Positions 17,837-47,200 of a stretch of DNA of 50,757 nucleotides are shown piece after piece. The stretch covers positions 1-50,757 of the forward strand of contig MEPB01000109.1 of NCBI GenBank assembly GCA_001769385.1, written 5' to 3'. Below the pieces are notes generated by a model. That model searched no databases. It was given only the letters and a program-made list of their open reading frames with translations, and was not told the DNA's origin. The DNA comes from Bacteroidetes bacterium RIFCSPLOWO2_12_FULL_35_15. Lineage in GTDB: Bacteria; Bacteroidota; Bacteroidia; 2-12-FULL-35-15. Made by a program: the position numbers and the translations under genes. The number at the start of each line of letters is the position of its first letter. The stretch's first letter is position 1.

Positions 17837-17852
17837 TTTGGTAATTTTTTCT

Positions 17853-18557: not shown

Positions 18558-18574
18558 TTGGTAATCTTTTTCTT

Positions 18575-32254: not shown

Positions 32255-33267
32255 CTTACAAGAAGTTTTGCTATTTCGGTGGCTGAAATTTCATTCATGC
32301 ACAAGCAATTTTGAGGATTTTTTTTACAGTCATTACATAATTTATCCACACAAACATAGTATGCTTTTTTTCCAATCGGCTGCCAGCGTCCCGGATGCAT
32401 TGGTTTAATCGGAGGATAAATACCGATCGCGCCAATGCCGGCCGCAGCAGCAATATGCAATGGTCCTGTACTTGCAGCCACTAAAAAATCAACGTTACCA
32501 ATAAATGCAATAAATTCCTCCAGGGAAAATTTTCCGGTAATATCCACAACATGTGTTGGCAACGATTTTATCCAATCGGAAAGAATAACTTTTTCTTTGT
32601 CGGTACCGCTTATAAAAATTTTATATTTTTCAGGGGGCAATAACTGAATCAACGCGCTGTAATTTTTCAAACTCCATTCACGAGCACTGGCATTTGATTT
32701 TGGGTGCAGTATCACATTGGTTTTAGTGGCATCAATCAATGCAAGAGAGGCACTATTTAAAGAAGGAATTTTTATAAAGCCAATATAGTTTGCCAGTTCC
32801 TTCAAGTCCGGAATAGTATTTATTCCCAACGGACCTAATAATTTGCAATTCAATTGAGCCTCATGCAAAGTAGAATTTTTTCGACTCAACTTTACTAATT
32901 TGTTTACGTTTCCCCAATGGAACAAACGATTGGTGGTTCCTATCCGATTTTTTATTTTTGCTTTCTTAGCAAGCTGCGCAATTCGTTTATTCGGAAAGAC
33001 GTGAACCAGTGTATCTGCATTTAATGTCCTGAGTTTTTCTATTGCAGCTGTGTCTTCTAACTTCAATAGTTCATCCGCATTTACAAACTCATCAACAAAT
33101 TCACAACAATTAATAATTGCTTGTGTATAGGTTCGTCCTAAGAAAATAATTTTTGCATCCGGAAAATGTTTTTTAATTAATCCACAAACCGGCAGTGTTA
33201 AGATCACATCACCAATGGCATCGGTACGACTAATGATAATACGTTTTATGTCAGGAGTAGAACTCAC
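32251..33267 (-). CDS. glycosyltransferase family 9 (heptosyltransferase-like)
   Basis: This 338-residue GT-B enzyme resembles lipopolysaccharide core heptosyltransferases. It has the N-terminal IIISRTDAIGDVILTLPVCGLIKK and IIFLGRTYTQAI, and the second-domain NVILHPKSNASAREWSLKNYSALIQLL and VAASTGPLHIAAAAGIGAIGIYPPIKPMHPGRWQPIG that contact the sugar nucleotide. A cluster of four cysteines near the C-terminus (CVDKLCNDCKKNPQNCLC) could bind metal and is common in this family. The start is a GTG at 33265-33267. The gene begins 2 bp after its upstream neighbour's stop, so the two are translationally linked. Confidence 0.92.
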   Translation of the reverse strand: MSSTPDIKRIIISRTDAIGDVILTLPVCGLIKKHFPDAKIIFLGRTYTQAIINCCEFVDEFVNADELLKLEDTAAIEKLRTLNADTLVHVFPNKRIAQLAKKAKIKNRIGTTNRLFHWGNVNKLVKLSRKNSTLHEAQLNCKLLGPLGINTIPDLKELANYIGFIKIPSLNSASLALIDATKTNVILHPKSNASAREWSLKNYSALIQLLPPEKYKIFISGTDKEKVILSDWIKSLPTHVVDITGKFSLEEFIAFIGNVDFLVAASTGPLHIAAAAGIGAIGIYPPIKPMHPGRWQPIGKKAYYVCVDKLCNDCKKNPQNCLCMNEISATEIAKLLVS

Positions 33268-33269
33268 GT

Positions 33270-34022
33270 TTACTTGTAAAGATTTCGTAATTTTTTATAC
33301 TTTAAAAATGTGGCGTATGCAGAAATCCGGCAAACTGTAAATCCTGCACTTCCATCTAAAAATCCAAGTTTAAAAATATAATCGCGCATAAATTTCACAA
33401 CAGGGCTCATCCAGCATTTTAAGAGTGACGCCTTTTTCCCTTCTTTAAATTGAGCTTTTGCTAAAATATCTGTAAAATAATTCACTTGTTTGTAATGGTC
33501 TTCAATGGTATAATAACTGTAGTGTAAAATATTTCCTTTTAATGAGGCAGTGGTTTTGTCACCTTCAAGCATCCTATATTTGTCGTGTGGATTTACGCCT
33601 CCCCATGCACCTTTTCGCGAATCCCAAAGTCGTAATTTTGAATCGGGATACCAGCCGCAATGATAGATCCATTTCCCGCAATAATTGGTCAAACGATTCA
33701 TATAATAGCCTTCATACTTCCAGTTTTTTTTAATTTCCAAAATGGATCTTTTCAAAACCTCATCCAATGCTTCATCCGCATCCAATGATAATACATGTGG
33801 AAATTTAGCTTGTGTAATAGCATAATTTTTCTGCTCAATATGGCCTTCAAAGGAATGTTGAATAAAGCGTACACCTTTTGTTTTACAAATTTCTTGAGTT
33901 TTATCAGTCGAAAAAGAATCAACCACAACCACATCATCTGCTATTTCCTGAATGGAATCAAGACAGCGTGCAATATTTTTTTCTTCGTTGAAGGTGATAA
34001 TAACAACTGACAGTGGTATCAT
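33270..34022 (-). CDS. glycosyltransferase family 2 (LPS core / WaaE-like)
   Basis: This 250-residue GT-A enzyme starts MIPLSVVIITFNEEKNIARCLDSIQEIADDVVVVDSFSTDKT, the nucleotide-binding fold, with the metal-binding motif LSLDADEAL at about 75-83. The C-terminal half has HCGWYPDSKLRLWDSRKGAWGG, typical of WaaE/KdtX-like beta-1,4-glucosyl- or galactosyltransferases that decorate LPS inner core. It runs into the family 9 gene 2 bp downstream; together with the ligase-like protein they suggest LPS core or O-glycan assembly. The acceptor is unknown. Confidence 0.92.
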   Translation of the reverse strand: MIPLSVVIITFNEEKNIARCLDSIQEIADDVVVVDSFSTDKTQEICKTKGVRFIQHSFEGHIEQKNYAITQAKFPHVLSLDADEALDEVLKRSILEIKKNWKYEGYYMNRLTNYCGKWIYHCGWYPDSKLRLWDSRKGAWGGVNPHDKYRMLEGDKTTASLKGNILHYSYYTIEDHYKQVNYFTDILAKAQFKEGKKASLLKCWMSPVVKFMRDYIFKLGFLDGSAGFTVCRISAYATFLKYKKLRNLYK

Positions 34023-34053
34023 TTACGGTTTTCGGAATATCTGTTCTTACAGG

Positions 34054-34061
34054 CAAAAGTA
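34054..34061 (-). promoter_or_regulatory. TAnnTTTG -7 element for the glycosyltransferase pair
   Basis: On the minus strand the site reads TACTTTTG, a consensus match 31 bp upstream of the GT2 ATG at 34022. Confidence 0.45.
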
Positions 34062-34131
34062 CTAAAATTATCTACTTTATAAGTGTAACCGCATCAGTAA
34101 TGAATGACGTTCAATTTTATCCCGGATGAAT

Positions 34132-34310
34132 TTAATTTTCAATAATTACTTTCTTAACTGTCTTTATTTGATCACCGCTAATTTTCAGAAAATAAATGCG
34201 GAAGAAATCCCCTGAATAAGAATTGTATTTGTGGTTTCTCCATGGTGCAGATCCAGTTCTTTGGTTTGCAGAATTTTGCCTGATGGATCTGTAAGAAGAA
34301 GTGCAGCTTT
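34132..34310 (-). pseudogene. decayed T9SS C-terminal sorting domain
   Basis: Two out-of-phase pieces on the minus strand read as one sorting-domain tail. The first is KAALLLTDPSGKILQTKELDL...GETTNTILIQ. After a slip at the G4 run near 34209-34212 (one extra G restores frame), the second is GDFFRIYFLKISGDQIKTVKK, then VIIEN and TAA (34132-34134). The YPNP-type start of the domain and any cargo are absent. It sits directly after the DUF2490 gene of the CotH locus, so a further T9SS-exported protein probably once ended that operon. Confidence 0.7.
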
Positions 34311-34344
34311 CTTTTAATTTTTTCCCTGAAAAAGTTTTCAGTTT

Positions 34345-35028
34345 CTACAAAGATAAACTATACTCTATTCCAACAATATACAGATTTTGAGGTGCAGAAA
34401 CATTGAATTCCTGCTGGATCAGATAATATAATCCAACTGTATTTCTGTTGTTGTATTTGTAATCCAACCCAAGCGCAAAACGACCACGATGCCATAGTTT
34501 ATTTGATTCAACAGCTCTTGGATTATTGATCTGATAACGGAATTCCGTTGCAATATAAGGAGTTACAGGTTTATCCAGATCGTATTTCAATTCAAATTTA
34601 TTTCTCGAATACCATTCCGGAATATTTCCGATTTCACTCGAATAAACATTTCTTACTTCTGCCTGAATCCGTTCACGAAAAGAAGCTGTAAGTTTTCCAA
34701 ATTTTTTCTTTACAGAAATATCAAGCATTAAACGGTGGCGATAACTGAATGTGTTATCCTCCATATATTTTTCAATTGGCCGGTAAGCCAATGATACTTT
34801 CAGAAAATCAAGCGGTTTAACAAAAACTCCCAGATCCGTATAAAACAGATTGGTACGGGTAAAATTTTCTTTTCTTCTGTATTCTTCGGTGATAAAAACA
34901 CCGAATTTTTTATTCAGTTTTTTTTCAATATTAAAAGTAGCCCACAAGCCGGCATCATTTGTAGCTTGTGAAAACACATCCACTGAAAAAAGAATTGTAA
35001 TTATAAAGGATAGAACGTATTTATTCAT
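34345..35028 (-). CDS. DUF2490 outer-membrane protein
   Basis: This 227-residue precursor has a signal peptide (MNKYVLSFIITILFSVDVFS). The mature chain is alternating amphipathic strands (GLWATFNIEKKLNKKFGVFITEEYRRKENFTRTNLFYTDLGVFV, and so on), ending in an aromatic-rich C-terminal strand IVGIEYSLSL as in outer-membrane barrels. This matches the DUF2490 family, of unknown function. It is last of nine minus-strand genes, 21 bp after the DUF4956 gene. In the inferred system it could be a pore or an anchor for exported products. Confidence 0.8.
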   Translation of the reverse strand: MNKYVLSFIITILFSVDVFSQATNDAGLWATFNIEKKLNKKFGVFITEEYRRKENFTRTNLFYTDLGVFVKPLDFLKVSLAYRPIEKYMEDNTFSYRHRLMLDISVKKKFGKLTASFRERIQAEVRNVYSSEIGNIPEWYSRNKFELKYDLDKPVTPYIATEFRYQINNPRAVESNKLWHRGRFALGLDYKYNNRNTVGLYYLIQQEFNVSAPQNLYIVGIEYSLSL

Positions 35029-35049
35029 ACAATTTATATAGACAATATA

Positions 35050-35682
35050 TTAATCAAATTTGCTTTCATAATGGTACACTCTGATGTTTGCCGTATCTTT
35101 TAAAAAATCGATCTTGTTTATTTCGATCCTGTTAATTGTTATTCCCATCCTCATTTCCAGATCGGCTTTCAGTTCAGCTCTACACGCCGGTTTTATCAGT
35201 TCAATGTTTTCATATTGTATCATTTGTGAAACTTCTTTTTTAAATATTATGGTTGTTTCAAGAAGCAGTGTAAAAATGATGATGATCGAATTAATGAAGG
35301 ATAGTTCTATCCAGTTGCCTTTACTTAAAGCTGTTATTAATCCCATCGCGATCACCAGGAACATATAAGTCATATCTTTTGTAGTGATGCCTTCGGTCCG
35401 GTATCGTAACATCGAGAAAACCGCGAATAAACCAAATGCTGCTCCCATGCTCATATCTGATTTGTTCAGAATAAATGTGATCAGGAAGATGATCAGGTTG
35501 AAGATGAATAGTGTAAAAAAGTTTTCCCGGTTTTTATATACCGGAAAATAAATAAACCGGATCAGTACAAAAACAGAAATAAAATCAATTGTCAGCCGGA
35601 TGAAAAATTTAGGTCCTAATTTTTCAAAAAATGCAAACCCTGTTGAAGCGGTATCTCCGCTAAGTTCTTGTAAAAGTACCAT
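35050..35682 (-). CDS. DUF4956 integral membrane protein
   Basis: This 210-residue protein has four membrane helices (about 25-45, 55-75, 80-95 and 105-145 clusters) followed by a cytoplasmic ~65-residue domain (YENIELIKPACRAELKADLEMRMGITINRIEINKIDFLKDTANIRVYHY). The conserved loop GAAFGLFAVFSMLRYRTEGITTKDMTYMFLVIAMGLITALS is typical of DUF4956. In other genomes this family often neighbours VTC-domain polyphosphate polymerases and CotH proteins, as here. Its start overlaps the VTC gene's end by 23 bp, so the two are translationally coupled. It is a plausible membrane partner or exit channel for polyphosphate, by analogy with the membrane part of yeast VTC; this is inference. Confidence 0.85.
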   Translation of the reverse strand: MVLLQELSGDTASTGFAFFEKLGPKFFIRLTIDFISVFVLIRFIYFPVYKNRENFFTLFIFNLIIFLITFILNKSDMSMGAAFGLFAVFSMLRYRTEGITTKDMTYMFLVIAMGLITALSKGNWIELSFINSIIIIFTLLLETTIIFKKEVSQMIQYENIELIKPACRAELKADLEMRMGITINRIEINKIDFLKDTANIRVYHYESKFD

Positions 35683-36424
35683 TTAGTGTTTTTTTTAGTA
35701 AAATTAAATTTGGTTTAAAATTATTATGTTTAATTTTTTCAAATAAGTTGATCACTCCATAACAGTATTTACTGATGGAACCTTCCCGGACATGATATCC
35801 TTTCATTAATTTCATGAAGGCTGAATCCACAGATTTGTCTTGTTTTACTTCCGCAATCACCAAATTATCTATGGTCTTATCCTGTTCGGAATTTTTAAAG
35901 GTCAAGTCAAGATCGATGGTAACTCGCTCAGGAGAATTTTTATTTACCAATGTTATTCTGGAATAATTGACCCAAAGCTTTGCTTCTAAATGTATGGGAA
36001 GCAAGGGTGTTTTTTCTTTCAATAAGGTTTCGGCAATATCTATTATTTTACCGTCAATTTGGGATTGTTTTACACGGTCCTTAATTGTTCTTCCTTTATT
36101 ATTCTTGAATTTTACTTCAAAAAAATGCAATTCGGATTCCACATATTTCCGGCAACGAATTTTAAACCGGGTAGGTTTACCTCTGTGGTGCGCATGATAC
36201 AAGTCGAAGTGCTCTGTATCAAAATAAAGGGATTCGTACCGGCTTATTCTGTTTCCATTCACATCCAACACCCGGTAATTGTTTTTTATCTGTTCCAGAA
36301 AATGGGGCAATTGATCGAGCCTGAAAACAAACTTGGTATCGGTCCTGTCCATCAGGGCAACGCTGTCCATTTCTTTCAGAGAAATAGTTTCAAAATCAGT
36401 TAATATATTTTTAATTCCGTTCAA
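35660..36424 (-). CDS. polyphosphate polymerase (VTC-domain protein)
   Basis: This 254-residue protein with the TTM/VTC fold would make polyphosphate from ATP inside a positively charged tunnel. Family signatures are in order: EMDSVALMDRTDTKFVF, RYESLYFDTEHFDLYHAHH, RFKIRCRKY, FFEVKFKNNKGRTIKDR, LEAKLWVNYSRI, ERVTIDLDLTFKN and LVIAEVKQDKSVDSAFMKLM. The pairs of Arg and Lys on alternating strands and the acidic EVK segment correspond to the phosphate-binding and metal sites of yeast Vtc4. The start is a TTG at 36422-36424; no ATG lies before the conserved domain. It is followed with a 23-bp overlap by DUF4956. Polymerase activity is not proven for this bacterial branch. Confidence 0.88.
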   Translation of the reverse strand: MNGIKNILTDFETISLKEMDSVALMDRTDTKFVFRLDQLPHFLEQIKNNYRVLDVNGNRISRYESLYFDTEHFDLYHAHHRGKPTRFKIRCRKYVESELHFFEVKFKNNKGRTIKDRVKQSQIDGKIIDIAETLLKEKTPLLPIHLEAKLWVNYSRITLVNKNSPERVTIDLDLTFKNSEQDKTIDNLVIAEVKQDKSVDSAFMKLMKGYHVREGSISKYCYGVINLFEKIKHNNFKPNLILLKKTLNGTFTRT

Positions 36425-36511
36425 TTTTAATACTCGTAAACGTGTTTTTTAGGGCGATCAAATTCTCTTTTGAATCTTTTTTCGGTTTTCCTCAACTAAT
36501 TTCAGTCCTTA

Positions 36512-36943
36512 TTAATTATAAATTTCAACAGTACCTGCATCCACTTCTTCTTTCTTTTTACTTATTTCGATACTCTTTAAAACAGCGACCTTTGGAGCAT
36601 ATAAATTGGGATTTAGCATGCTATAGGGAGGGGCGACTGTCCCAACCGAATCCTTTGAATAAACATATATTTTATATGAACCTTTACGGAGGTATTGAAA
36701 TTCGAAAACACCATCCGGTCCTGATTTTATTTTATTTCCGTAAGAAACTTCATCGCCATAAATAATATAAACATCCTCGTCAGCACCCACATATTGATTT
36801 AATAAGATGGAGAAATTATCGTTGTAATTTTTCACATGCACCTTTCCTCTAATACTTGAATTACCTCCTTCACCGGCAGGTTTTTTACATGATACAATAA
36901 CCAGTGCTGCTGCAATCGAAATTATAAAAAATATTTTTTTCAT
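36512..36943 (-). CDS. small lipoprotein with a regulatory-like beta-sandwich
   Basis: This is a 143-residue precursor: MKKIFFIISIAAALVIVSC with the lipid-linked Cys at 19, then KKPAGEGG. The mature part starts IRGKVHVKNYN, then DGVFEFQYLRKGSYKIYVYSKDS, which has the pattern of carboxypeptidase-regulatory/prealbumin-like domains. The same type of fold occurs in the lipoprotein triplet at 17141-19270, though sequences differ. It lies between the CotH and VTC genes with 87-89 bp on each side and has no enzymatic motif. It may be an envelope partner of one of those proteins. Confidence 0.8.
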   Translation of the reverse strand: MKKIFFIISIAAALVIVSCKKPAGEGGNSSIRGKVHVKNYNDNFSILLNQYVGADEDVYIIYGDEVSYGNKIKSGPDGVFEFQYLRKGSYKIYVYSKDSVGTVAPPYSMLNPNLYAPKVAVLKSIEISKKKEEVDAGTVEIYN

Positions 36944-37032
36944 GTTTTTTGATACTTGTTTTATATATTAAAACTTATTCTTTGGGAGATCCACTAAATA
37001 TACTCAAACTTACATTAAAATTAAGCACGAAT

Positions 37033-39321
37033 CTATTTTAAAATCTGAAGTTTTTTAAACTGATCAGCATTTATTTTTAGAACATAGAATCCTTCGGATA
37101 ATTCGGAAATACTCACCGTTTCAATTTTGTTGGTTGAAATAATAGTTTTTATTTCCTGGCCCAATGCATTGTATAAACAAATTGTATTTTCTTTTTCAGT
37201 GCTGTTAAATTGTATTGTAAAATACTCACAAGCCGGATTAGGATATACTTTTATCTCATTTTCAGCGGCTCCATTTTCATTGATGCCTGTTAAACAATTG
37301 GATGCATTAAATGTTGGCAGACTTGGAATAAAAGTTCCTGTTCCGTCCGGGCACCTGCCAACAGAAACGTCTCCAACCTGGGCTCCAAAGTTTATACTAT
37401 CTAATATGTTACCTGAAATGTCACTCAAAACAAGTTGCTCTCCGCCTGATAATAATTTAAAATTACAATGAAGATAGGAGGATGTGGTTGCATTCTCATC
37501 GGCCCAAACTACCAGGTAACCCTGCGGCTGAATGATTGCATTGTCGGGGAAAGCAAATTTTGTTAGGTTGAGGGAATTATCAGTCAGATACAAGCCAAAC
37601 ATGTTCAAGGAGCTTGATGTATTATTGTAAAATTCTATCCAGTCTTCATGCTGACCATTTTCATTTGTATTATAACCCTGGTTGGCGGCCAAAAATTCAT
37701 TGATCCTGACTTGTCCCGAAGCAGCAGTCTGAACATTCGACTGTAACGTATAAAATTCATGTTCCGCTCGTTCCGGTGAAAACATTCCGGCAGTATTATT
37801 TTCAGCATAAATATAATATTGCAGCACCGGACCATTCATTGTAAATGTGGCTCCATAAATATTATCGCCTGCTGTGCCATCATTATTTAAGCCATCATCA
37901 GTCATTAAAATTCGAGTGAATTTATCCGTGTTCACAAAACGATAACCCAGATAAACTGAATTTGCATTTGTGTTTGTGACCTGAGCCGCAATACTGATCG
38001 TGCTATTTATACCAGGCGTTAAATTGCTTGGGGTTATCGCAGAAATAGTTGGAGGTACAGCCGTAAAATCAGCCAAAGATTGTAAATAAGAAACTCTTGC
38101 ACTCATCAGCGTACTAATACCCGGCACAACATAGCTCCCAACAGTAGTGTTACTTGTCATGGCTGATTGAAACTGAGCATACGTAAAAAATTTATTTGTA
38201 TCTGCTACAATTGCAGTATCAATTAAGGTCTGCAATTGTGAAGCAGTCGTTTGATAACTATTGGATACAAACATTTCATTCATAATGGTTCGCATGTGGG
38301 CAATATACATTCGTTTATACAGGACATTATTCATCACATCTTTTATCAATGGCCAGTAAACATCGGCAGAATGAATGGTAGGTGACAATTGCTGCATGTT
38401 GGCAACCGTTAAGCTTCCCATACTGGAATTTGAACTCCCGACAAAAGGAAATCCACCCAAAGACATATTCAGATCCCAAATTACCGGATTGAAACGTTTG
38501 GTATTATCTTTATATAAATAATAATTCTGAGCAAATACTCCGGTGTAACTATCCAGATTAATTAATACATTATTAAATGCCAACATCCAGATTGCTCTGT
38601 CCATATCCAGTACAGAGGAAATGTTTGATGAAAAATTAGTGACGGTATCACAAAGTCCAACCAGATCATTCCATCCATTTGTTGATTTTATTTCATAATA
38701 ATTAAAATAATTTGAACTATCGGTTGTGTTATATTTTAAATTGCTTTTTGTAGCCGGACCCGGATTTACAATTGGATTACATTTGATCAGGGTATTTTGC
38801 GAAGAAAAAAAGTGATCGGAACAAAAGGACTTACCAATTGGTTCAGCATTTGAATACAATCCAACATAAGCTCCGTTAACAAAAAGCTGAGCAAAGTTGG
38901 ATCGTGGGCAATCCATATAATTCTGCAAAATGTTATAGGAAAGAACTTCCCTGATCATGGAAGGATCGGCATACCCATTACCAAGTTTAATATCTTTTAT
39001 GCTTTGATAGGATTGACTCTTAAATTCATCCAACGAAATGTGTATTGGATTTTTTAAATACGTTGAGTTGTAGGAACTGTTTCCTTTGTACTTAACACCT
39101 ACGCTATCGAACTGCACTCCATTGATTTTCACTAATGAAGCCATTATATAACTGTCAAACCCATTTTTTGCGGTATCCATTTGATAATCCCAATCGGGTT
39201 GCGTAAAACTAATTTCGATCTTTTGAATGGTAGTTAAATCGTAAAAAGTAGTTTGGCTCTGCGCAGTTGCTATTATAAATAATGCAAAAATTACAAGTAT
39301 CAGGAGTTTGCTTTTAATCAT
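37033..39321 (-). CDS. exported CotH kinase with lamin-tail and T9SS sorting domains
   Basis: This is a 762-residue precursor with a signal peptide to about residue 20. The CotH kinase domain spans about 25-420 and has GVKYKGNSSY, ADPSMIREVLSYNILQNYMDCPRSNFAQLFVNGAYVGLYSNAEPIGKSF and the metal/catalytic region NPVIWDLNMSLGG with Asp283. CotH of Bacillus phosphorylates spore-coat proteins. An Ig-like segment follows, then a lamin-tail domain (about 535-655: INEFLAANQGYN...EDWIEFYN...LYLTDN), and a T9SS type A sorting domain ends the chain (VYPNPACEYFTIQF...LSEGFYVLKI). The protein is thus exported across the outer membrane and anchored or released there. It stands 12 bp after the carbohydrate-binding-like gene. 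Confidence 0.9.
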   Translation of the reverse strand: MIKSKLLILVIFALFIIATAQSQTTFYDLTTIQKIEISFTQPDWDYQMDTAKNGFDSYIMASLVKINGVQFDSVGVKYKGNSSYNSTYLKNPIHISLDEFKSQSYQSIKDIKLGNGYADPSMIREVLSYNILQNYMDCPRSNFAQLFVNGAYVGLYSNAEPIGKSFCSDHFFSSQNTLIKCNPIVNPGPATKSNLKYNTTDSSNYFNYYEIKSTNGWNDLVGLCDTVTNFSSNISSVLDMDRAIWMLAFNNVLINLDSYTGVFAQNYYLYKDNTKRFNPVIWDLNMSLGGFPFVGSSNSSMGSLTVANMQQLSPTIHSADVYWPLIKDVMNNVLYKRMYIAHMRTIMNEMFVSNSYQTTASQLQTLIDTAIVADTNKFFTYAQFQSAMTSNTTVGSYVVPGISTLMSARVSYLQSLADFTAVPPTISAITPSNLTPGINSTISIAAQVTNTNANSVYLGYRFVNTDKFTRILMTDDGLNNDGTAGDNIYGATFTMNGPVLQYYIYAENNTAGMFSPERAEHEFYTLQSNVQTAASGQVRINEFLAANQGYNTNENGQHEDWIEFYNNTSSSLNMFGLYLTDNSLNLTKFAFPDNAIIQPQGYLVVWADENATTSSYLHCNFKLLSGGEQLVLSDISGNILDSINFGAQVGDVSVGRCPDGTGTFIPSLPTFNASNCLTGINENGAAENEIKVYPNPACEYFTIQFNSTEKENTICLYNALGQEIKTIISTNKIETVSISELSEGFYVLKINADQFKKLQILK

Positions 39322-39333
39322 TTTTCTTCCGCA

Positions 39334-40341
39334 TTATTCAATGATCAATTTTAGATTGGTACTATTTTTTTTGCTGTTCAAAATAGTCAGAAAATAAACG
39401 CCCGATGTTAAGGTCTCCTTTTCGATCCTCAGTTCTGCCGCATTATGATTGTTGTAGGAGCGGACAATCCTACCCGTGATATCCAGTATGTAAACCGAAT
39501 GTAAAATATCAATATCGTTAAAATGCAAAATTGTAAAATCAGTTGCAGGATTAGGAAATAATTTCAGTTCGTTCATTTCTGTATGTTCAGATATGCCGGC
39601 AATGGCGCTACATGAATAGCAGGTCGAGAAACATACCACTTCCAAAACGGTATCATGCGGAACCAGAAAATTTCTATTTCCGGAAGTTGCACAACTTGCA
39701 GGCACAGTTTCGTATTCCGAAATTAAATTACCGTTGATATACTTAAATTGGCAACCGGCTGCATTTGTATCAATATAGGCGATGTATTCATATACCGTAT
39801 CATTAAATGAATAGAGAATGTTTTTTGCAGTATTCCAACCCTGCCAGGTTCCGGCAACATGTGGTTTTTCAGCACTTACTGTTTGATACAGCATATCTAC
39901 TTTAAAGCGTATCAGGTTAAACCCTGCCGGTGCATTTCCGGCAAATCTGATTGCCCCCACAAATGTTGTATCATTTGCCAATGAATCAACATACAACCAT
40001 CTGTTGTCATTAAAATTATATCCTACACGTGCTTCAACCGGAACAAACTCTGCCTCATAAAACTGATCGCCATTAACGAATTTGTATTCATACTTGGCAA
40101 AGGCCGGAATATTCACTACAATACTGAATATATTAGTATCTGCTGTTTCCCGGACAAGTGAAGTTGTATTTGGTGCCCAATCACCACCGGCAAATCCAGC
40201 AAGTGTTTGAAAGTCACCTGATACATGCATTCCGAGTGAACTAACCGGAATACCGGTCATGTCCACAGCAAATTTCACTTTTTTTGCGAATGCAAAAGAG
40301 CTAATTGAAAGTAATAGTGATACGATAATAATTTTTTTCAT
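39334..40341 (-). CDS. T9SS-exported protein with two carbohydrate-binding-like repeats
   Basis: This is a 335-residue precursor. The signal peptide (MKKIIIVSLLLSISSFAFA) precedes two related ~110-residue repeats. Repeat 1 is VKFAVDMTGIPVSSLGMHVSGDFQTLAGF...YEYKFVNGDQFYEAE; repeat 2 is IRFKVDMLYQTVSAEKPHVAGTWQGWN...CQFKYINGNLISEYETV. The pattern (VDM, hydrophobic strand, G-D/T-F/W, FKYINGN) resembles starch-binding CBM20/48-type or SusE/F-like modules. A Cys-rich linker (CFSTCYSC) leads to a sorting domain (LKLFPNPATDFTILHF...LTSGVYFLTIL). It lies between the sulfotransferase and CotH genes with 12-19 bp spacings. Its likely role is to bind a glycan or glycoprotein target for those enzymes; this is inference. 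Confidence 0.8.
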   Translation of the reverse strand: MKKIIIVSLLLSISSFAFAKKVKFAVDMTGIPVSSLGMHVSGDFQTLAGFAGGDWAPNTTSLVRETADTNIFSIVVNIPAFAKYEYKFVNGDQFYEAEFVPVEARVGYNFNDNRWLYVDSLANDTTFVGAIRFAGNAPAGFNLIRFKVDMLYQTVSAEKPHVAGTWQGWNTAKNILYSFNDTVYEYIAYIDTNAAGCQFKYINGNLISEYETVPASCATSGNRNFLVPHDTVLEVVCFSTCYSCSAIAGISEHTEMNELKLFPNPATDFTILHFNDIDILHSVYILDITGRIVRSYNNHNAAELRIEKETLTSGVYFLTILNSKKNSTNLKLIIE

Positions 40342-40360
40342 CAGACAAAATTTTAATTTC

Positions 40361-42061
40361 TTATTTAATTAAAGATATTCTTTTTACTATAGAACCTGAA
40401 TTTTCGCCAGTTAATTTAATGATATAAATTCCATTTTCAAAAGAAGAAAGGTCGATTGTAGATGCATTTATTTCTTTTACAACTAATTTTCCGACTGCAT
40501 CAAAAACCAGCACCTCATAATTTGTTCCTATCCTAGATGATGATTCAATTGTAATTATTCCGCTTGTTGGATTCGGGTAAATGATAATATCGCTTACACT
40601 ATTTTCATTAATCCCAGTAGCCGAAAATGTAAAATTAAATCCCGGTGAATATTCGTAAACACATCCATTGCTATCGGTAATGCGTACAATATAAATTCCA
40701 GTTTGCGTGGCATTGTAGTCCTGACTGGTTGCCCCTGCTATTAAAGAACCATTCAGATACCATTGATAGGTTGTAGCTGATGTAGCACTTAAGGTATTAC
40801 CCGCAAGTGAAATTGAAGGGATTGCAGGAGGTGGATTGTTGATGTAACAATCGCTGTAACGAAATGCTTTTGCACAGGCACCTGTTAAAGTTTTTGACCA
40901 TAATAATGTTCCGGTAGGTCCAAACTCTTTTATATAGCCCGAAATACCCATACTCACAAGGGTATTTCCATTTGGCAATTGTTGTGACCCACCTTCATTA
41001 CTATTGTATCCACCGGCAAGTATCCGCTTGGTGTATGAAGAAGGTAAATAGGCAGAACCAGGGGTTAATGAATAATTATAACCGGAAACAGGGGGAGCAA
41101 TAAAATCAACACAAGAAGCATTACTTGGGCTCGTAATTCCTTTGTTATTATATCCTGCCAAATTTCCGGCATTCGGACACCCTTCCGGGATCCAATGAGC
41201 ATCATGCACGACATTGAGTATTTTTGTCCCTGTAGCACCATAAGCTGCGGGATTTCCCCAACGATACAAAATATCACCACCTTTTCCTGAGTTGCCACCC
41301 GAATGAGTTGCTGCTTCTGCCGTTGTTGTGCTATGGTCAATTACATATATTTCACTTAAATTATGCGAACTAAAGGTTACCTGATCAAGGATCGGATTAT
41401 AGTCTACTCCGTTCATATGCAGCCAATCTTTTTGCGCTTGATAGTTTATATTTAATAGTTCCGGATGATTTACAATGGATGTCTGATAATTTGCAGCTGA
41501 AGCATTTGTATTTTGAACCAAATGATCCCAGGCATGCCATTCCCAAACAACGTTTCCGGTAGTGGCGCCTGTTGGTTGCACTTCCACAATTTTATCAGGC
41601 CACATCGTGTTCGAAAAAGTTGAACATCCTGCTGCGGTTACCTGTGTCCCGGTTTTTGTTTCGTAAGCAATCAATAATACATTTCCGTTTGGCATGGGAC
41701 AAATGTCGTGGTGGGTGCAATAAGCCGTTGTTGAATAAACAAAATCCCACACTACATTTCCATTGTAATCCAGTTTCTGTACCTCTCCGCAAATAGGTCC
41801 TCCGGTAAATGAATTTCCGGTTCTTTCAATTGCTCTCCAAAGAAAACCTCCCGGCATTAAATAGGTAGAGTAACCTGTTTTTTTCGCTGTAGCATCTGTC
41901 CATGTATGATAAACAGTGCCATTGGTATCAACTAATTGTGCGGTTGAAGTAGTTTTTATGCTATACAAGGTGTAACCGGGATATTGTTGCGCCATCATGC
42001 TTGTGAATACGAAAAAGCTGATGATCATCAAAAGCTTTGCTGTTATGTTTGTTTTTTTCAT
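40361..42061 (-). CDS. T9SS-exported aryl-sulfate sulfotransferase-like protein
   Basis: This is a 566-residue precursor with a signal peptide to about 24. The body is a six-bladed propeller (about 30-400) of the ASST/arylsulfotransferase family: VYHTWTDATAKKTGYSTYLMPGG, a histidine-rich CTHHDICPMPNGNVLL, VVWEWHAWDHL, DWLHMNGVDYNPILDQVTFSSHNLSEIYVID, and VVHDAHWIP. These His motifs match the donor-binding and transient sulfo-His sites of bacterial ASST. An Ig-like segment (about 415-480) and a T9SS sorting domain (IIIYPNPTSGIITIESS...FENGIYIIKL) follow. ASSTs move sulfate between phenolic esters without PAPS, so they can work outside the cell. It is first in the enzyme block, 90 bp after the LytTR regulator. 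Confidence 0.88.
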   Translation of the reverse strand: MKKTNITAKLLMIISFFVFTSMMAQQYPGYTLYSIKTTSTAQLVDTNGTVYHTWTDATAKKTGYSTYLMPGGFLWRAIERTGNSFTGGPICGEVQKLDYNGNVVWDFVYSTTAYCTHHDICPMPNGNVLLIAYETKTGTQVTAAGCSTFSNTMWPDKIVEVQPTGATTGNVVWEWHAWDHLVQNTNASAANYQTSIVNHPELLNINYQAQKDWLHMNGVDYNPILDQVTFSSHNLSEIYVIDHSTTTAEAATHSGGNSGKGGDILYRWGNPAAYGATGTKILNVVHDAHWIPEGCPNAGNLAGYNNKGITSPSNASCVDFIAPPVSGYNYSLTPGSAYLPSSYTKRILAGGYNSNEGGSQQLPNGNTLVSMGISGYIKEFGPTGTLLWSKTLTGACAKAFRYSDCYINNPPPAIPSISLAGNTLSATSATTYQWYLNGSLIAGATSQDYNATQTGIYIVRITDSNGCVYEYSPGFNFTFSATGINENSVSDIIIYPNPTSGIITIESSSRIGTNYEVLVFDAVGKLVVKEINASTIDLSSFENGIYIIKLTGENSGSIVKRISLIK

Positions 42062-42151
42062 AGGTCAATTTATTTTTTGCCAAATATCATTTGAAAGGTA
42101 TGTGTAAAAAAATTAAATCGGTAAAAGATTAATTTATTGAGGTAAATAGTA

Positions 42152-42847
42152 TTACTTTTTAAAAATGTCAAAGAACTCCGCTTCGTAGCTGCTTCCAACA
42201 GGGATTTCTTTACCTGCAATTGTAATATTTTTTTTTCTCACACTTTCAATCTTACTGAAAGAAATGATGAAAGAGCGATGAACCCGAATAAATTCTTTTG
42301 AAGGTAATTTTTCCATGATCCCTTTCATCGTCATTCGGGTAACAACAGGCTTACTGTTATTTTGTATGTAAATTTTCAAATAGTCATCCAAGCCTTCTAT
42401 CAATACAATGTCGTTGATCGCTATTTTGATGAGACTGTAATCAGCTCTGACAAAAAGATAAGCTTCCTGGTTTTTTTCTGATGGTACCAAAGCACTATAA
42501 AAATCATTTGCTTTATTTACGGCTTGTAAAAAACGTTCGTAAGTATATGGTTTAAGCAGGTAGTCAACCGCATTCAGATTAAAGCCTTCCACAGCAAATT
42601 CGCCATAAGCGGTAGAAAAAATAACCATTGTGTTTTGTTCTACTGCTTTATAAAGTTCGATCCCTGAAATGGAAGGCATATTAATATCTAAAAAAAGAAG
42701 ATCCGCTGGAAATTTTCGCAGATATTTTAATCCTTCGGTTGGTCTTGAAAATGTTTTCTGCAATTCAATAATTCCGGATTTTTCACAAAAATGCTCAATA
42801 ATTTTTAGTGCCGGCAATTCATCGTCAATGGCTATCGCTTTTATCAT
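42152..42847 (-). CDS. LytTR-family response regulator
   Basis: This 231-residue protein has a receiver domain (about 2-120) with the acidic pair DD at 8-9, phospho-acceptor Asp54 (DLLFLDINMPSISG) and the Lys in YLLKPYTYERF. The DNA-binding LytTR domain (about 135-231) has YLFVRADYSLIKIAINDIVLIEGLDDYLKIYI, KGIMEKLPSKEFIRVHRSFIISFSKI and IPVGSSY. It overlaps its kinase gene by 4 bp (ATGA) and faces the T9SS/CotH block on the same strand, which is a likely target. I did not find clear LytTR direct repeats in the short 42062-42151 interval. Confidence 0.94.
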   Translation of the reverse strand: MIKAIAIDDELPALKIIEHFCEKSGIIELQKTFSRPTEGLKYLRKFPADLLFLDINMPSISGIELYKAVEQNTMVIFSTAYGEFAVEGFNLNAVDYLLKPYTYERFLQAVNKANDFYSALVPSEKNQEAYLFVRADYSLIKIAINDIVLIEGLDDYLKIYIQNNSKPVVTRMTMKGIMEKLPSKEFIRVHRSFIISFSKIESVRKKNITIAGKEIPVGSSYEAEFFDIFKK

Positions 42848-43890
42848 TTGATATCAAGAGTAAGTGAAACACTATATTCTTTTTCAGTGTCATCAATAAC
42901 AAGTTTATGTTTTAAAGAAGAATTGTATTGCAATCTGTTTTTTGTGTTTTTAACTCCCAATCCACTTTTAAATTCTTCCATACGTTGAACAAAAACCTTA
43001 TTGTTTTTTACAGATAAAAATAACTCATTTTCGGAAATATCAATATTAATTTTGATGGAAGAGTTGCCTTCTGCGTTTACTCCATGTTTGTAAGCGTTTT
43101 CAATAAATGAGATCATGATCAGGGGAGCGATCATTTTATTTTTCTTTTCCCCTGAAATGTTGCATTCCACATGAATAAAACTCCCAAATCTTATTTGCTG
43201 CAGCTCTATGTAGTTTTGAATATATTCGATCTCCTTTTCCAGACTTACATCATCCTTTGAGCTTTCATTCAATACATACCGCATCATGTTGGAGAGCTTA
43301 ACAATTGATGGTGCAACATTATCTGACCGAACGATGGCTAAAGAATAAATACTGTTTAAGGTGTTGAATAAAAAATGGGGATTGATCTGTGATCTCAAAT
43401 ACGACAATTCCAGATCCAGTTTTTCGTTTTCAGTTTGCTTCCACTGGTTGTTTATTTTTATCAACAAGGAGAATACAAGTACAATTAAAAATTGAAAAAT
43501 GAACTTTCCTGAATTATGAAAAACATCGCCAAATGGTCCCGGCATAAATCCTTTTAGTCCACGATGAAATGGCGGGGGCGGTTCTTCCAGATGAAAAATA
43601 TTTTGTGTTTGAAATAAGAATGTAAGAAAGAAAATCAGAAAAAAAGAAAGGATCGCTATCGAGAAAAAAAGAAAATATTTTTTGTTGAAATATAACCTGG
43701 GTACCAGAATATAATAACTGAGGTAGAAAAAAAGAATTAAAAAAACAGAAAAAAGCAAGTCACGAACAAAACCTAAGTCGTTTATGAAATCAAAAGGAGA
43801 TGAAATATCAGGAGTAAATAAAAGGGGAAATGCTAATAATACAGCACAACCCAAAATATGAATAATCAGCTGGTTGACTCTTTTGTTCAT
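42844..43890 (-). CDS. LytS/YehU-type sensor histidine kinase
   Basis: This 348-residue kinase has four membrane helices (about 7-25, 43-62, 70-92 and 130-147). The extracytoplasmic loop between helices 3 and 4 is rich in Pro, Phe and His (EEPPPPFHRGLKGFMPGPFGDVFHNS). The His_kinase domain follows: LDLELSYLRSQINPHFLFNTLNSI with His172. The ATPase region has MISFIENAYKHGVN (N-box) and GLGVKNTKNRL (G-box). It lacks a classical HisKA and belongs with a LytTR regulator, which overlaps it by 4 bp. The His/Pro-rich loop could sense metal or phosphate-like ligands at the envelope, which is speculative. Confidence 0.93.
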   Translation of the reverse strand: MNKRVNQLIIHILGCAVLLAFPLLFTPDISSPFDFINDLGFVRDLLFSVFLILFFYLSYYILVPRLYFNKKYFLFFSIAILSFFLIFFLTFLFQTQNIFHLEEPPPPFHRGLKGFMPGPFGDVFHNSGKFIFQFLIVLVFSLLIKINNQWKQTENEKLDLELSYLRSQINPHFLFNTLNSIYSLAIVRSDNVAPSIVKLSNMMRYVLNESSKDDVSLEKEIEYIQNYIELQQIRFGSFIHVECNISGEKKNKMIAPLIMISFIENAYKHGVNAEGNSSIKINIDISENELFLSVKNNKVFVQRMEEFKSGLGVKNTKNRLQYNSSLKHKLVIDDTEKEYSVSLTLDIK

Positions 43891-43903: not shown

Positions 43904-44123
43904 ATTTAAATGTTGAAATGAGCCCTAAGCATATTCTAAATAAAGAGGTGAGTAAGAATATTTTGTAGGTATAAATTTCTATCGTATAGTATTATCACCA
44001 CTATTTAGAATGAAATCAGTGCATCACACAAGGGCTGTGTTCATATCGATATTAGCAGTTGCCACGTTACATTTTTGCTCTTCGAAATATACTTTGTTGT
44101 CACATTGTACAAAAATTATCTGC

Positions 44124-44131
44124 TATATTTG
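44124..44131 (+). promoter_or_regulatory. TAnnTTTG -7 element directly before meaB
   Basis: TATATTTG ends 7 bp before the ATG at 44139. The longer frame from 44010 would run through this promoter, so I place the start at 44139. The transcript would be leaderless or nearly so. Confidence 0.55.
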
Positions 44132-44138
44132 TCCAATC

Positions 44139-45047
44139 ATGTCAGTTACAAAAACACTTATTCAGCAATTACAAAAGGGAGATAAAAAATCCCTTGCACG
44201 TTGTATTACCATTGTTGAAAATGAATTAGATGGCTACGAAGAAATACTAACTTCACTGGATTTTAATCAGCATATTCCTGTTATTGGCGTTACCGGACCT
44301 CCGGGAGCAGGAAAAAGCACGTTGATAAATTCTGTCATTAAAAAACTTACCACGCAAGGAAAATCTGTTGGTGTGATTGCCATCGATCCTACATCCCCTT
44401 TTAATTATGGTTCTTTGCTGGGTGATAGATTGCGTATGGCAGAACATTTTACCAACGAAAAAGTTTTTATCCGTTCCATCGCCACACGAGGTTCATTAGG
44501 TGGATTATCTGTAAAAACAATTGAAATAGTGGATATAATGCGTGCTTTCTCATTTGATTATATTATTGTAGAAACGGTTGGTGTCGGGCAAAGTGAAGTG
44601 GAAATAGTTGGCCTGGCCGATACAACAGTTTTAGTTTTAGTTCCTGAAGCAGGTGATGAGGTACAGGCTTTGAAATCGGGTGTAATGGAAATTGCTGATA
44701 TTTTTGTTGTGAATAAGTCAGACAGAGAAGGTGCAAACATTTTTTTGAAAAACCTGGCTCAATTGGCACATTCGAAACCTTTATCAGATTGGAGTATTCC
44801 TGTGATTAAATCAATTGCTACAACTCATGAAGGTGTTGACGAATTAATTGCTTCTATAAACAAACATCACACCACAGGAGTAAACTCAAAGCGTCCGTAT
44901 CTATTGGTTGAAAAAGCATATCGCTTAATACAAAATCACCGGATGAAAAGTGTTTCGAAACAACTATTACAACAGCAGATTGAAGCGGAATTTAAAAAAC
45001 CTGATTTTAATTTGTATCGTTTTGTGAAGGAGAATGAATTTTATTAA
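44139..45047 (+). CDS. meaB: MeaB/ArgK-like GTPase (methylmalonyl-CoA mutase chaperone)
   Basis: This 302-residue G3E-type GTPase loads and protects B12-dependent acyl-CoA mutases. Walker A is GPPGAGKST at 53-61. It has DPTSPFNYGSLLGDRLRMAEHF, the switch region RGSLGGLSVKT, ETVGVGQSEVEI with the conserved Gln-Ser-Glu, and the guanine-specificity motif VNKSD. The N-terminal helix (MSVTKTLIQQLQKGDKKSLARCITIVEN) and C-terminal tail are typical. The mutase itself is not in this window. It is divergent from the LytS kinase, sharing the 248-bp intergenic region. Confidence 0.94.
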   Translation: MSVTKTLIQQLQKGDKKSLARCITIVENELDGYEEILTSLDFNQHIPVIGVTGPPGAGKSTLINSVIKKLTTQGKSVGVIAIDPTSPFNYGSLLGDRLRMAEHFTNEKVFIRSIATRGSLGGLSVKTIEIVDIMRAFSFDYIIVETVGVGQSEVEIVGLADTTVLVLVPEAGDEVQALKSGVMEIADIFVVNKSDREGANIFLKNLAQLAHSKPLSDWSIPVIKSIATTHEGVDELIASINKHHTTGVNSKRPYLLVEKAYRLIQNHRMKSVSKQLLQQQIEAEFKKPDFNLYRFVKENEFY

Positions 45048-45052
45048 ACTAA

Positions 45053-45160
45053 TGTCATCTCGACCACTCGACTTTGCTAAGTGTAATCGCAGTGGAGAGA
45101 TCTTTATACTTATGTATTTGTTCAATTTAACAAGATTCCTCCGCTACGGTCGGAATGACA
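45053..45160. repeat. MITE-like repeat with 13-bp imperfect terminal inverted repeats
   Basis: The left end TGTCATCTCGACC (45053-45065) and the inverse of the right end GGTCGGAATGACA (45148-45160) agree at 11 of 13 positions. The 108-bp unit has internal complementarity (ACCACT/AGTGG). From memory, TGTCATTTCGACC...GGTCGAAATGACA units are common in Bacteroidota intergenic DNA. It lies 6 bp after the meaB stop. Confidence 0.65.
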
Positions 45161-45190
45161 ATTTTTAAAGGCATGCAAATAAAATTTTAA

Positions 45191-46264
45191 ATGAACCGCA
45201 GAACTCAAACAGCTGATTTATTAAAAGGAATAGCGGTGCTCCTGATGATACAGGTACACATCATAGAGTTATTTGCGAGCAATACAATTTACAACAGCAT
45301 TATAGGAAAGATCTTACTGTTTTTAGGTGGCCCTCCTGTAGCACCTGTCTTTATGGCCATTTTCGGCTATTTTATTGCCGCGTCAAAACGATCTTCTTTG
45401 CAATTAATTATCAGAGGAATGAAATTTTTTGCATTAGGAATGTTTCTGAACATTGCACTGAATTTAAACCTGATCATCTCTGTAAATAGAGGATTGCTTC
45501 AAATTGACCTACTACCTTATATTTTTGGTGTTGATATATTGCAGTTTGCGGGTATTGCAATTATTATTATTGCTATTTTCAAAAAGGCTTTTGAAAATAA
45601 TTTATTTTTTGTTCTGATCTGTATTTTGATCTCCTCTTTTATGGGAAATCTGTTAAGTAATTTTAGTCCGGAAACAGATGTGATGCGCTATATATGCTCC
45701 TTTATTTACGGTTGCAGCAAATGGTCGTATTTCCCATTATTTCCGTGGTTAGCCTACCCATTAATCGGCATTGCGTTCTATCAATTCAAAAAACAATATG
45801 GAGTGACTGATATCAATAAATCCATTTCCGACATATTTAAAAAACCGGAAGCACAACGATTTTTCAAACAAATGATGGGAGTAGTCTTTTTTCTTTTTTT
45901 ACTATTAACCGGCAGATACGCAGTTTCTGTTGCTTCCAACCTGCCTTCCTATTACCACCATGAATTTATTTTTATGGTATGGACATTGATCTTTCTGGCG
46001 CTATATAGTTTCAACATGAATGAAATAAATAATTTTGCCAGAGAATTTATTTTATTCAAATACATCAAATGGCTTGGGAAAAATGTGACCATCATGTATG
46101 TTCTTCAATGGATCCTTATTGGTAATACAGCTACGGAAATATACAAGACAGTTACTTCACCTTTATATTTAGTCATCTACTTTTTTGCCGTTTTAGGAAT
46201 TGCGAGTGGAATAAGTTATTTGTTGATTGGGTTGAAAGAACGGTTTTTCAAAAAAGCTGTTTAA
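45191..46264 (+). CDS. HGSNAT-like membrane acyltransferase (DUF1624-type)
   Basis: This 357-residue protein has roughly ten membrane helices. The N-terminus MNRRTQTADLLKGIAVLLMIQVHIIELFA carries the Asp-Lys-Gly and membrane-embedded His typical of the heparan-alpha-glucosaminide N-acetyltransferase-like family. PVAPVFMAIFGYFIAASKR, LQIDLLPYIFGVDILQFAGIAI and WSYFPLFPWLAYPLIGIAFYQFKKQY match the same group. Members move acyl groups from cytoplasmic acyl-CoA to sugars on the other side of the membrane. It is the only gene between the MITE-like repeat and a convergent neighbour. The substrate is unknown. Confidence 0.8.
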   Translation: MNRRTQTADLLKGIAVLLMIQVHIIELFASNTIYNSIIGKILLFLGGPPVAPVFMAIFGYFIAASKRSSLQLIIRGMKFFALGMFLNIALNLNLIISVNRGLLQIDLLPYIFGVDILQFAGIAIIIIAIFKKAFENNLFFVLICILISSFMGNLLSNFSPETDVMRYICSFIYGCSKWSYFPLFPWLAYPLIGIAFYQFKKQYGVTDINKSISDIFKKPEAQRFFKQMMGVVFFLFLLLTGRYAVSVASNLPSYYHHEFIFMVWTLIFLALYSFNMNEINNFAREFILFKYIKWLGKNVTIMYVLQWILIGNTATEIYKTVTSPLYLVIYFFAVLGIASGISYLLIGLKERFFKKAV

Positions 46265-46318
46265 GGCTGTAAGTCTTGCTAATAATGACGAAATTGGACG
46301 CAATTCCTAACTGTAATT

Positions 46319-47200
46319 TTACTTTGGAAATGAAATTGATACATTAATTGGATATTGTGAAATAACCCCATCAATTTTTGCAGGAGCCCAAGTAGGGCAA
46401 TTATCAATTAACTCAAATATGTTTTTAAGATAACATTTATCGGAAGTGTAAATTAATTTTGGTTCTATTAATTTACCATTAGTATCCACTGTAGCCGTAA
46501 TATAGATTTTTCCATTAAACCAGCCACAAGAAAGGCTTTTTTCTTGTATTCCGTTTCTTAGATAATCTATGAATTTATCATATCCAAGTGGAAACACCGG
46601 TTTGATAATATGAGGAAAATAGAGTGTGTCTTGCCCAGAAATAGTGAAACATTTTCCACTTATAAATACCCCATTATCATAAGTATCCAATCTAACTAAT
46701 TTACCATTAGGATAAAAAGAAAAATAATTTCCATTGAACTTCCCATTTTTGAATTTTGCCATTTCAGAAACAGAATTATCCTCCCGCCATTTTTTTAAAT
46801 TAATAATTGTATCATTATGAAATACTCTTAAGGCCTTCATTTGTCCGGATTCATAATATTCTTTGCTTTCCCCTTCTAGACGATTCTTTATATAAAATTC
46901 CTCTGCTTTCTTTTTTCCATTAGGATAATAATAAACAAATTTCCCATGTTTAAGTTTTCTATCCCAGTCAAGATAGGAACCTGTCATTTGCAAAGTATCA
47001 TTTTTATAATAATCCTCTGCCAAAAACAAATTTACTTTTAATGAATCCTTTATCTTGCGAATTACACTGTGATATTCAGCCGACCGTTCATTATCAACCT
47101 TTTGCCAATATTTATCATAATATTCGGTCTCATATTTTTGAGCCATACTACGGCTAGAAAAAATAAAAAAAGTAAACGCCACTAAAATTAAACGCATCAT
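46319..47200 (-). CDS. YwqK/MORN-like repeat protein with TonB-type C-terminal domain
   Basis: This is a 293-residue precursor with signal peptide MMRLILVAFTFFIFSSRSMA. Middle residues (about 55-185) contain MORN_2/YwqK repeats: KHGKFVYYYPNGKKKAEEFY, EGESKEYYESGQMKALRVF and FNGNYFSFYPNGKLVRLDTY. The C-terminus (about 225-293: NGKIYITATVDTNGKLIEPKLIYTSDKCYLKNIFELIDNCPTWAPAKIDGV) matches the TonB C-terminal fold. Proteins of this combination are common in Bacteroidota envelopes but have no assigned function. It lacks a membrane helix other than the signal, so it is not a classic TonB. It runs convergent with the acyltransferase gene. Confidence 0.82.
   Translation of the reverse strand: MMRLILVAFTFFIFSSRSMAQKYETEYYDKYWQKVDNERSAEYHSVIRKIKDSLKVNLFLAEDYYKNDTLQMTGSYLDWDRKLKHGKFVYYYPNGKKKAEEFYIKNRLEGESKEYYESGQMKALRVFHNDTIINLKKWREDNSVSEMAKFKNGKFNGNYFSFYPNGKLVRLDTYDNGVFISGKCFTISGQDTLYFPHIIKPVFPLGYDKFIDYLRNGIQEKSLSCGWFNGKIYITATVDTNGKLIEPKLIYTSDKCYLKNIFELIDNCPTWAPAKIDGVISQYPINVSISFPK

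What the first reader, a model, noticed from the sequence alone, without database searches (positions are those of the whole stretch)
34345..43890. Nine-gene locus joining T9SS-exported CotH kinase and sulfotransferase with VTC polyphosphate polymerase and DUF4956
Seen: nine same-strand genes in the order LytS kinase, LytTR regulator, ASST+T9SS, carbohydrate-binding-like+T9SS, CotH+T9SS, lipoprotein, VTC, DUF4956 and DUF2490, with 12-91 bp gaps and 4- and 23-bp overlaps. Known: CotH is a protein kinase; ASST moves sulfate without PAPS; VTC4 makes polyphosphate; VTC, DUF4956 and CotH genes often cluster. Inferred: one regulated system that makes polyphosphate at the inner membrane and modifies a surface glycoprotein with phosphate or sulfate outside the cell. 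I know of no described system with this whole gene set.
Basis: partly seen in the sequence, partly recalled or inferred. Interest (0 to 1): 0.82.

Follow-up and report, generated by a model that had tools for sequence, protein, structure and literature searches.

The report
Surface phosphate–sulfate modification gene cluster
Nine neighbouring genes in an uncultured Bacteroidota genome form a recurring, clearly non-random module that joins a polyphosphate-polymerase-like enzyme and its membrane partner inside the cell with a kinase-like, a sulfotransferase-like and a carbohydrate-binding-like protein sent to the cell surface; what it makes is unproven but testable.

Summary
Nine minus-strand genes at 43890-34345 are as described: His_kinase, LytTR regulator, ASST+T9SS tag, CBM-like+T9SS tag, CotH+LTD+T9SS tag, lipoprotein, VTC, DUF4956 and DUF2490. 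The association recurs. Of 56 ASST-like loci with room downstream, 46 have CotH and 27 VTC. The order is conserved at 57-82% ASST identity, permuted in some lineages, and ASST and CBM are fused in three. A tenth gene (YD-repeat secreted protein, between lipoprotein and VTC) is usual in relatives; the window keeps only its 3' remnant. Active-site residues are conserved in VTC and CotH, and in ASST at 4 of 5 positions (Arg374 is His). DUF2490 models as an outer-membrane barrel nearest NanC/KdgM. A paralogous DUF4956-VTC-CotH set in the same genus sits in polysaccharide clusters, and the trio is known beside pel genes, where two of its three genes affect Pel production. Best reading: a regulated, envelope-spanning module that supplies phosphate (probably polyphosphate) and phosphorylates/sulfates a surface matrix. 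The module is well supported. Polyphosphate synthesis, export and the substrates are inferred. New variant of a known gene set.

The parts
42844..43890 (-). sensor histidine kinase, His_kinase PF06580 (LytS/BtsS-type), about four TM segments by eye
   Evidence: orthologues sit with the cluster at its 5' or 3' end in other genomes
42152..42847 (-). LytTR response regulator, 4-bp overlap with the kinase gene
40361..42061 (-). ASST-like protein (PF05935, beta-propeller family) with T9SS sorting domain; H118, H215, N217, H286 match E. coli ASST H252, H356, N358, H436; R374 is H233
39334..40341 (-). carbohydrate-binding-like (X25/CBM20-like) protein with T9SS sorting domain; fused to ASST in L155, L162, L171
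37033..39321 (-). CotH kinase-like protein with lamin-tail domain and T9SS sorting domain; D257/D283 align with the catalytic aspartates
36512..36943 (-). small lipoprotein (signal peptide ending VSC)
36425..36511 (-). 3' remnant of a deleted secreted YD/RHS-repeat gene (intact in the paralogue L044:4471-5040 and in most relatives)
35660..36424 (-). VTC-domain polyphosphate-polymerase-like enzyme, TTG start
35050..35682 (-). DUF4956 membrane protein: TM helices plus C-terminal alpha/beta (ACT/ferredoxin-like) domain; 23-bp overlap with VTC
34345..35028 (-). DUF2490 outer-membrane beta-barrel, nearest solved folds NanC/KdgM acidic-oligosaccharide porins

Best explanation
A two-component-regulated, envelope-spanning module that charges an extracellular matrix or surface glycan/protein with phosphate and sulfate. 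The VTC enzyme in the cytoplasm polymerises phosphate from ATP. DUF4956 is its inner-membrane partner and works like the membrane part of the yeast VTC complex, handing the chain to the periplasm. The lipoprotein and the YD-repeat protein act between the membranes. DUF2490 is the outer-membrane channel for a polyanion or acidic glycan. CotH (phosphotransfer), the ASST-like protein (PAPS-free sulfo- or phospho-transfer through an active-site His) and the carbohydrate-binding-like protein are exported by T9SS and act on the surface. The LytTR pair controls expression. Shown: gene set, recurrence, T9SS tags, conserved active sites, predicted barrel. Inferred: polymer made, direction of transport, substrates, co-regulation.
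For: Recurrence: around 56 ASST-like loci with >8 kb downstream, CotH 46, VTC 27, DUF4956 26, DUF2490 23, lipoprotein 22, HK 16; all ten families together in L123, L124, L158, L170, L175. Around 44 type-A VTC genes of 79 related genomes, DUF2490 37, lipoprotein 36, YD 31. Permuted orders (L129, L138, L173, L188) and HK-RR downstream (L141, L153, L157, L182, L189); ASST-CBM fusions. VTC4-type residues kept. CotH catalytic Asp pair invariant (PMC7821199). ASST His436 equivalent conserved. DUF2490 barrel Z 16.2 to NanC (2.8 A, 178 residues), 15.9 to KdgM (2.5 A, 161 residues), with conserved inward-facing basic residues. SprA present. Type-B DUF4956-VTC-CotH lies in glycosyltransferase/O-antigen-ligase clusters. 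In S. intermedius the DUF4956- and CotH-type genes SIR_1592 and SIR_1594 affect Pel level and aggregation (PMC12345266).
Against: No biochemistry on any bacterial VTC-DUF4956 pair was found in the library. DUF4956 has no convincing solved relative over its TM part, so a channel role is a guess. DUF2490 also occurs away from VTC, and NanC/KdgM are uptake porins. 20 of 56 ASST-like loci have CotH but no VTC within 9.5 kb, so the surface part can work without it. ASST Arg374 is His in most of the family. An outside kinase has no obvious ATP.
Confidence: 0.42

Rival explanations
1. Control module for matrix polysaccharide: CotH phosphorylates proteins of a secretion or assembly machine, VTC-DUF4956 senses or supplies phosphate inside, and ASST/CBM are separate tailoring proteins. 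Polyphosphate is not exported.
For: Proposed for CotH in pel loci (PMC7112168). The type-B trio sits in polysaccharide clusters. DUF4956 has a C-terminal ACT/ferredoxin-like domain of a kind often regulatory.
Against: In type A no polysaccharide synthase is conserved in the cluster, and the glycosyltransferases beside the window locus are not conserved next to it elsewhere. CotH and ASST are exported beyond any cytoplasmic control circuit.
Confidence: 0.25
2. The T9SS proteins are structural surface proteins: CotH as matrix scaffold or adhesin and the ASST-like propeller non-catalytic; VTC-DUF4956-DUF2490 is a separate phosphate-storage or transport unit carried along.
For: ASST Arg374 replaced by His in most members. 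Surface part and VTC part also occur apart.
Against: Strict conservation of catalytic His/Asn in ASST and both Asp in CotH. Repeated re-joining of the two parts in different orders.
Confidence: 0.17
3. Nutrient scavenging: DUF2490 imports acidic sulfated/phosphorylated oligosaccharides, ASST and CotH process them at the surface, and VTC stores the phosphate.
For: NanC/KdgM-like barrel; carbohydrate-binding-like protein.
Against: No glycoside hydrolase, polysaccharide lyase, sulfatase or SusCD gene was among the families recognised in the cluster. PPK1 and PPK2 are already present for storage.
Confidence: 0.1
4. Chance adjacency of unrelated operons.
For: Gaps of up to 90 bp and no transcript data.
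Against: Recurrent synteny over many families.
Confidence: 0.02

Closest known systems
CotH / poly-P polymerase / DUF4956 accessory genes of Gram-positive pel clusters (PMC7112168; S. intermedius SIR_1592-1594, PMC12345266)
   Same: The trio CotH, VTC-type polymerase and DUF4956, contiguous; matrix-polysaccharide context matched by the type-B paralogue in this genus
   Different: No pel genes here; CotH carries a T9SS tag; added ASST, CBM-like, lipoprotein, YD protein, OM barrel and LytTR pair
Yeast VTC complex (Vtc4/Vtc1)
   Same: VTC tunnel-domain residues conserved; paired with a membrane protein
   Different: No SPX domain found; the membrane partner is DUF4956, not the VTC1-type bundle
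C. perfringens NELoc-2 VTC-'tubulin/FtsZ'-CotH genes (PMC2879425)
   Same: VTC genes beside predicted membrane proteins and a CotH gene
   Different: Gram-positive, no T9SS or ASST; whether the 'tubulin' proteins are DUF4956 was not checked
Arylsulfate sulfotransferase (E. coli AssT)
   Same: Catalytic His and three further active-site residues
   Different: Arg374 is His; T9SS-exported; profile match to canonical-type Bacteroidota ASST at 98.7% probability but only weak sequence match to 3ELQ
NanC/KdgM porins
   Same: 12-strand-type monomeric barrel, basic inward residues
   Different: About 10% identity; function of DUF2490 not established (TC 1.B.81, PMC4827864)

Membership tests
CotH protein kinase | Catalytic aspartates D228 and D251 (B. 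subtilis numbering) | tested here: met
   NxD (D257) and WD (D283) align with the B. cereus CotH 5jd9 motifs and are invariant in 9 orthologues; the match of these motifs to B. subtilis D228/D251 is by motif, not by a direct alignment to the B. subtilis protein
CotH protein kinase | ATP-dependent phosphotransfer | not testable with these tools
   needs assay
VTC-type polyphosphate polymerase | VTC4 tunnel residues (K200, R264, R266, E426, K458), no ExExK acidic patch | tested here: met
   R27/K31, R90, R92, R156, R167, E192, K194, K219 invariant in 20 sequences and aligned to VTC4 structures; acidic-patch rule from PMC4641920, checked at the N-terminal motif and the E192/K194 motif only
Eukaryotic VTC complex | SPX domain and VTC1-type membrane domain | tested here: not met
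   254-aa protein with only the VTC domain; partner is DUF4956
Arylsulfate sulfotransferase (PF05935) | Active-site H252, H356, N358, H436 | tested here: met
   H118, H215, N217, H286; kept in 97 of 99 aligned relatives
Arylsulfate sulfotransferase (PF05935) | Active-site R374 | tested here: not met
   His in 78 of 99 sequences including the window, Arg in 16
Arylsulfate sulfotransferase (PF05935) | PAPS-independent sulfate transfer | not testable with these tools
   needs assay
Pel accessory cluster | CotH, VTC and DUF4956 genes together | tested here: met
Pel accessory cluster | Contiguous pelDEADAFG genes | tested here: not met
   nine genes by Pfam and immediate flanks 30680-34022 and 44010-47200 show none; the rest of the window was only read by eye
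T9SS cargo | C-terminal Por_Secre_tail and a T9SS translocon in the genome | tested here: met
   SprA
KdgM/NanC porin family | NanC/KdgM-type barrel fold | tested here: met
   AF2 pLDDT 92.4, Z 16.2 NanC, 2.8 A over 178 residues; DSSP lists 11 strands of 3 or more residues
KdgM/NanC porin family | Sequence-family membership / acidic-oligosaccharide transport | tested here: inconclusive
   Pfam gives DUF2490 only; transport not testable

The most novel reading that the evidence does not exclude
A dedicated polyphosphate synthesis-and-secretion machine: VTC and DUF4956 make and push polyphosphate through the inner membrane, DUF2490 passes it through the outer membrane, and exported CotH (and perhaps the ASST-like enzyme, via phospho-His) use it instead of ATP as the phosphate donor for the cell surface.
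Probability: 0.17. Interest if true: 0.88.

Novelty: new variant of a known kind. Interest (0 to 1): 0.6.

Why it matters
Extracytoplasmic CotH kinases have no known phosphate donor, and bacterial VTC-DUF4956 pairs have no function that I could find described. A compact module that puts both with an outer-membrane channel, in many Bacteroidota and with a related DUF4956-DUF2490 pair in B. thetaiotaomicron (BT3498-3499, PMC10434189), makes both questions testable and links them to matrix building.

Tried and rejected
The flanking glycosyltransferases, O-antigen ligase, MeaB and acyltransferase are not conserved beside the locus (one acyltransferase hit in L147), so they are left out. A Bacteroidota-type promoter scan (TTG-N17-23-TAnnTTTG) gave only one minus-strand hit, inside duf2490; generic promoters were no commoner than in shuffles. 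DUF4956 fold searches gave no significant whole-chain match; ALMT channel rows (Z 7.5) are within the range expected for helical bundles. ASST alone against the PDB gave only weak hits and needed profile-profile comparison. The idea that the Arg374-to-His change marks CotH-linked enzymes was tested and fails: CotH is near both forms. A His instead of Lys at the CotH 'SFK' motif was considered a loss of activity, but B. cereus CotH also has His there.

Full report
Observation. The nine ORFs, their strand, order and spacing are as reported. Pfam and NCBIfam confirm the families and the three T9SS sorting domains. The carbohydrate-binding assignment is weak (X25 8e-5, CBM20 1.3e-3), but a fused homologue gives the same CBM20 signal. 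The window is contig C109 of a 5.39-Mb, 99%-complete genome; same-genus contigs that could be matched by length to public records carry titles of uncultured Bacteroidetes MAGs. The genome has SprA, one ASST-family gene, seven CotH, four VTC, four DUF4956, PPK1 and PPK2.

Recurrence. I fetched the surroundings of the VTC genes found in 79 related genomes and annotated them with profiles grown from the window proteins. Two types appear. In type A (44 loci) the usual order is lipoprotein > YD protein > VTC > DUF4956 > DUF2490; within 9.5 kb DUF2490 is present in 37, lipoprotein in 36, YD in 31, CotH in 18 and ASST in 8. In type B (22 loci) the order is DUF4956 > VTC > CotH, CotH is present in 20, and the loci read by eye lie among glycosyltransferase-like genes with a Wzy_C (O-antigen ligase family) gene next to CotH. 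Starting instead from the ASST-like protein in 84,980 species genomes (only the best 80 of 542 matches are held, so close relatives dominate), 46 of 56 loci with room downstream have CotH, 27 VTC, 26 DUF4956, 23 DUF2490 and 16 the HK. All ten families occur together in five loci. Orders are permuted in L129, L138, L151, L173, L188 and L193, HK-RR sits downstream in five loci, and ASST is fused to the CBM-like protein in L155, L162 and L171. Conserved but permuted association is stronger evidence for joint function than short gaps alone. Sampling is uneven (36 of the 79 genomes are one genus).

The missing gene. Relatives have a 160-200-aa secreted protein with RHS/YD-type repeats between lipoprotein and VTC. 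In the window the 87-bp gap aligns with the end of this gene in the 93-97% identical paralogue on C39, so most of it was deleted here. Another copy on C68 keeps CotH and YD but has a frameshifted VTC and a lipoprotein remnant.

Are the enzymes likely active? VTC: residues invariant in 20 homologues include those aligned with yeast VTC4 K200, R264, R266, R361, R373, E426 and K458 (VTC4 numbering partly from memory). Triphosphate-tunnel phosphatases have an acidic patch that VTC4 lacks (PMC4641920); the window protein has R and K at the positions I could match. CotH: the two aspartate motifs that correspond to D228 and D251, whose mutation inactivates B. subtilis CotH (PMC7821199), are invariant. 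ASST: four of five catalytic residues (PMC10932419) are kept, including the His that carries sulfate; Arg374 is His in 78 of 99 sequences. None of this proves activity.

Envelope parts. DUF2490 models confidently as a signal peptide plus barrel (pLDDT 92.4), closest to the acidic-oligosaccharide porins NanC and KdgM (Z 16.2 and 15.9). Inward-facing strand positions, assigned from hydrophobicity, carry 21 K/R and 12 D/E in the window protein, with several basic columns kept in 18 or more of 25 sequences. I ran no control on unrelated barrels, so the charge argument is weak. DUF4956 models with TM helices and a C-terminal alpha/beta domain (pLDDT 79) that weakly resembles ACT domains of aspartate kinase, as described for S. 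intermedius SIR_1592 (PMC12345266).

Mechanism. The best reading is a regulated surface-modification module in which VTC-DUF4956 provides phosphate, probably as polyphosphate, and exported CotH and ASST-like enzymes work on a glycan or protein matrix bound by the CBM-like protein. [quoted passage not shown] Export of polyphosphate through DUF4956 and DUF2490 is the boldest step and is unproven.

Literature. Searches for the gene combinations found the trio in pel loci and a similar C. perfringens locus and no paper on the full set. The library covers only open-licence papers, so absence is weak evidence.

Verdict. Real, recurrent, and not named in what could be searched; a new variant of the CotH-VTC-DUF4956 gene set whose function is open.

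Noticed in passing
window 36425-36511: Remnant of the 3' end of a deleted YD/RHS-repeat gene; relatives and three further loci of the same genome keep the intact gene.
   Followed up: yes
L009 5800-8567 (contig C68): Decaying second copy: T9SS-tagged CotH and YD gene intact, VTC frameshifted, lipoprotein remnant only.
   Followed up: partly
L121 9001-15700 (contig C68): Distant DUF4956-VTC pair followed by CotH, a Wzy_C protein and a second CotH, at the end of a sugar/glycosyltransferase gene cluster; same arrangement in many congeners.
   Followed up: partly
window 34023-34344: Downstream spacer reads in one frame like a worn T9SS C-terminal domain (..DPSGKILQTKELDLHHGETTNTILIQGIS..), perhaps a relic of another cargo gene.
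   Followed up: no
L160 17588-18675, L175 18762-19862, L147 13740-14890: Lipoprotein-DUF2490 pairs without VTC or DUF4956 between them, suggesting these two form their own envelope unit.
   Followed up: no
window 17141-19270: Three consecutive very similar ORFs of 231-234 aa (lipoprotein-like, ETIRGNVRNxCTGK) in tandem.
   Followed up: no
L203 (G014 C267): One congener carries 13 ASST-family matches, five of the genes within 11.5 kb, with canonical-type active-site residues.
   Followed up: no
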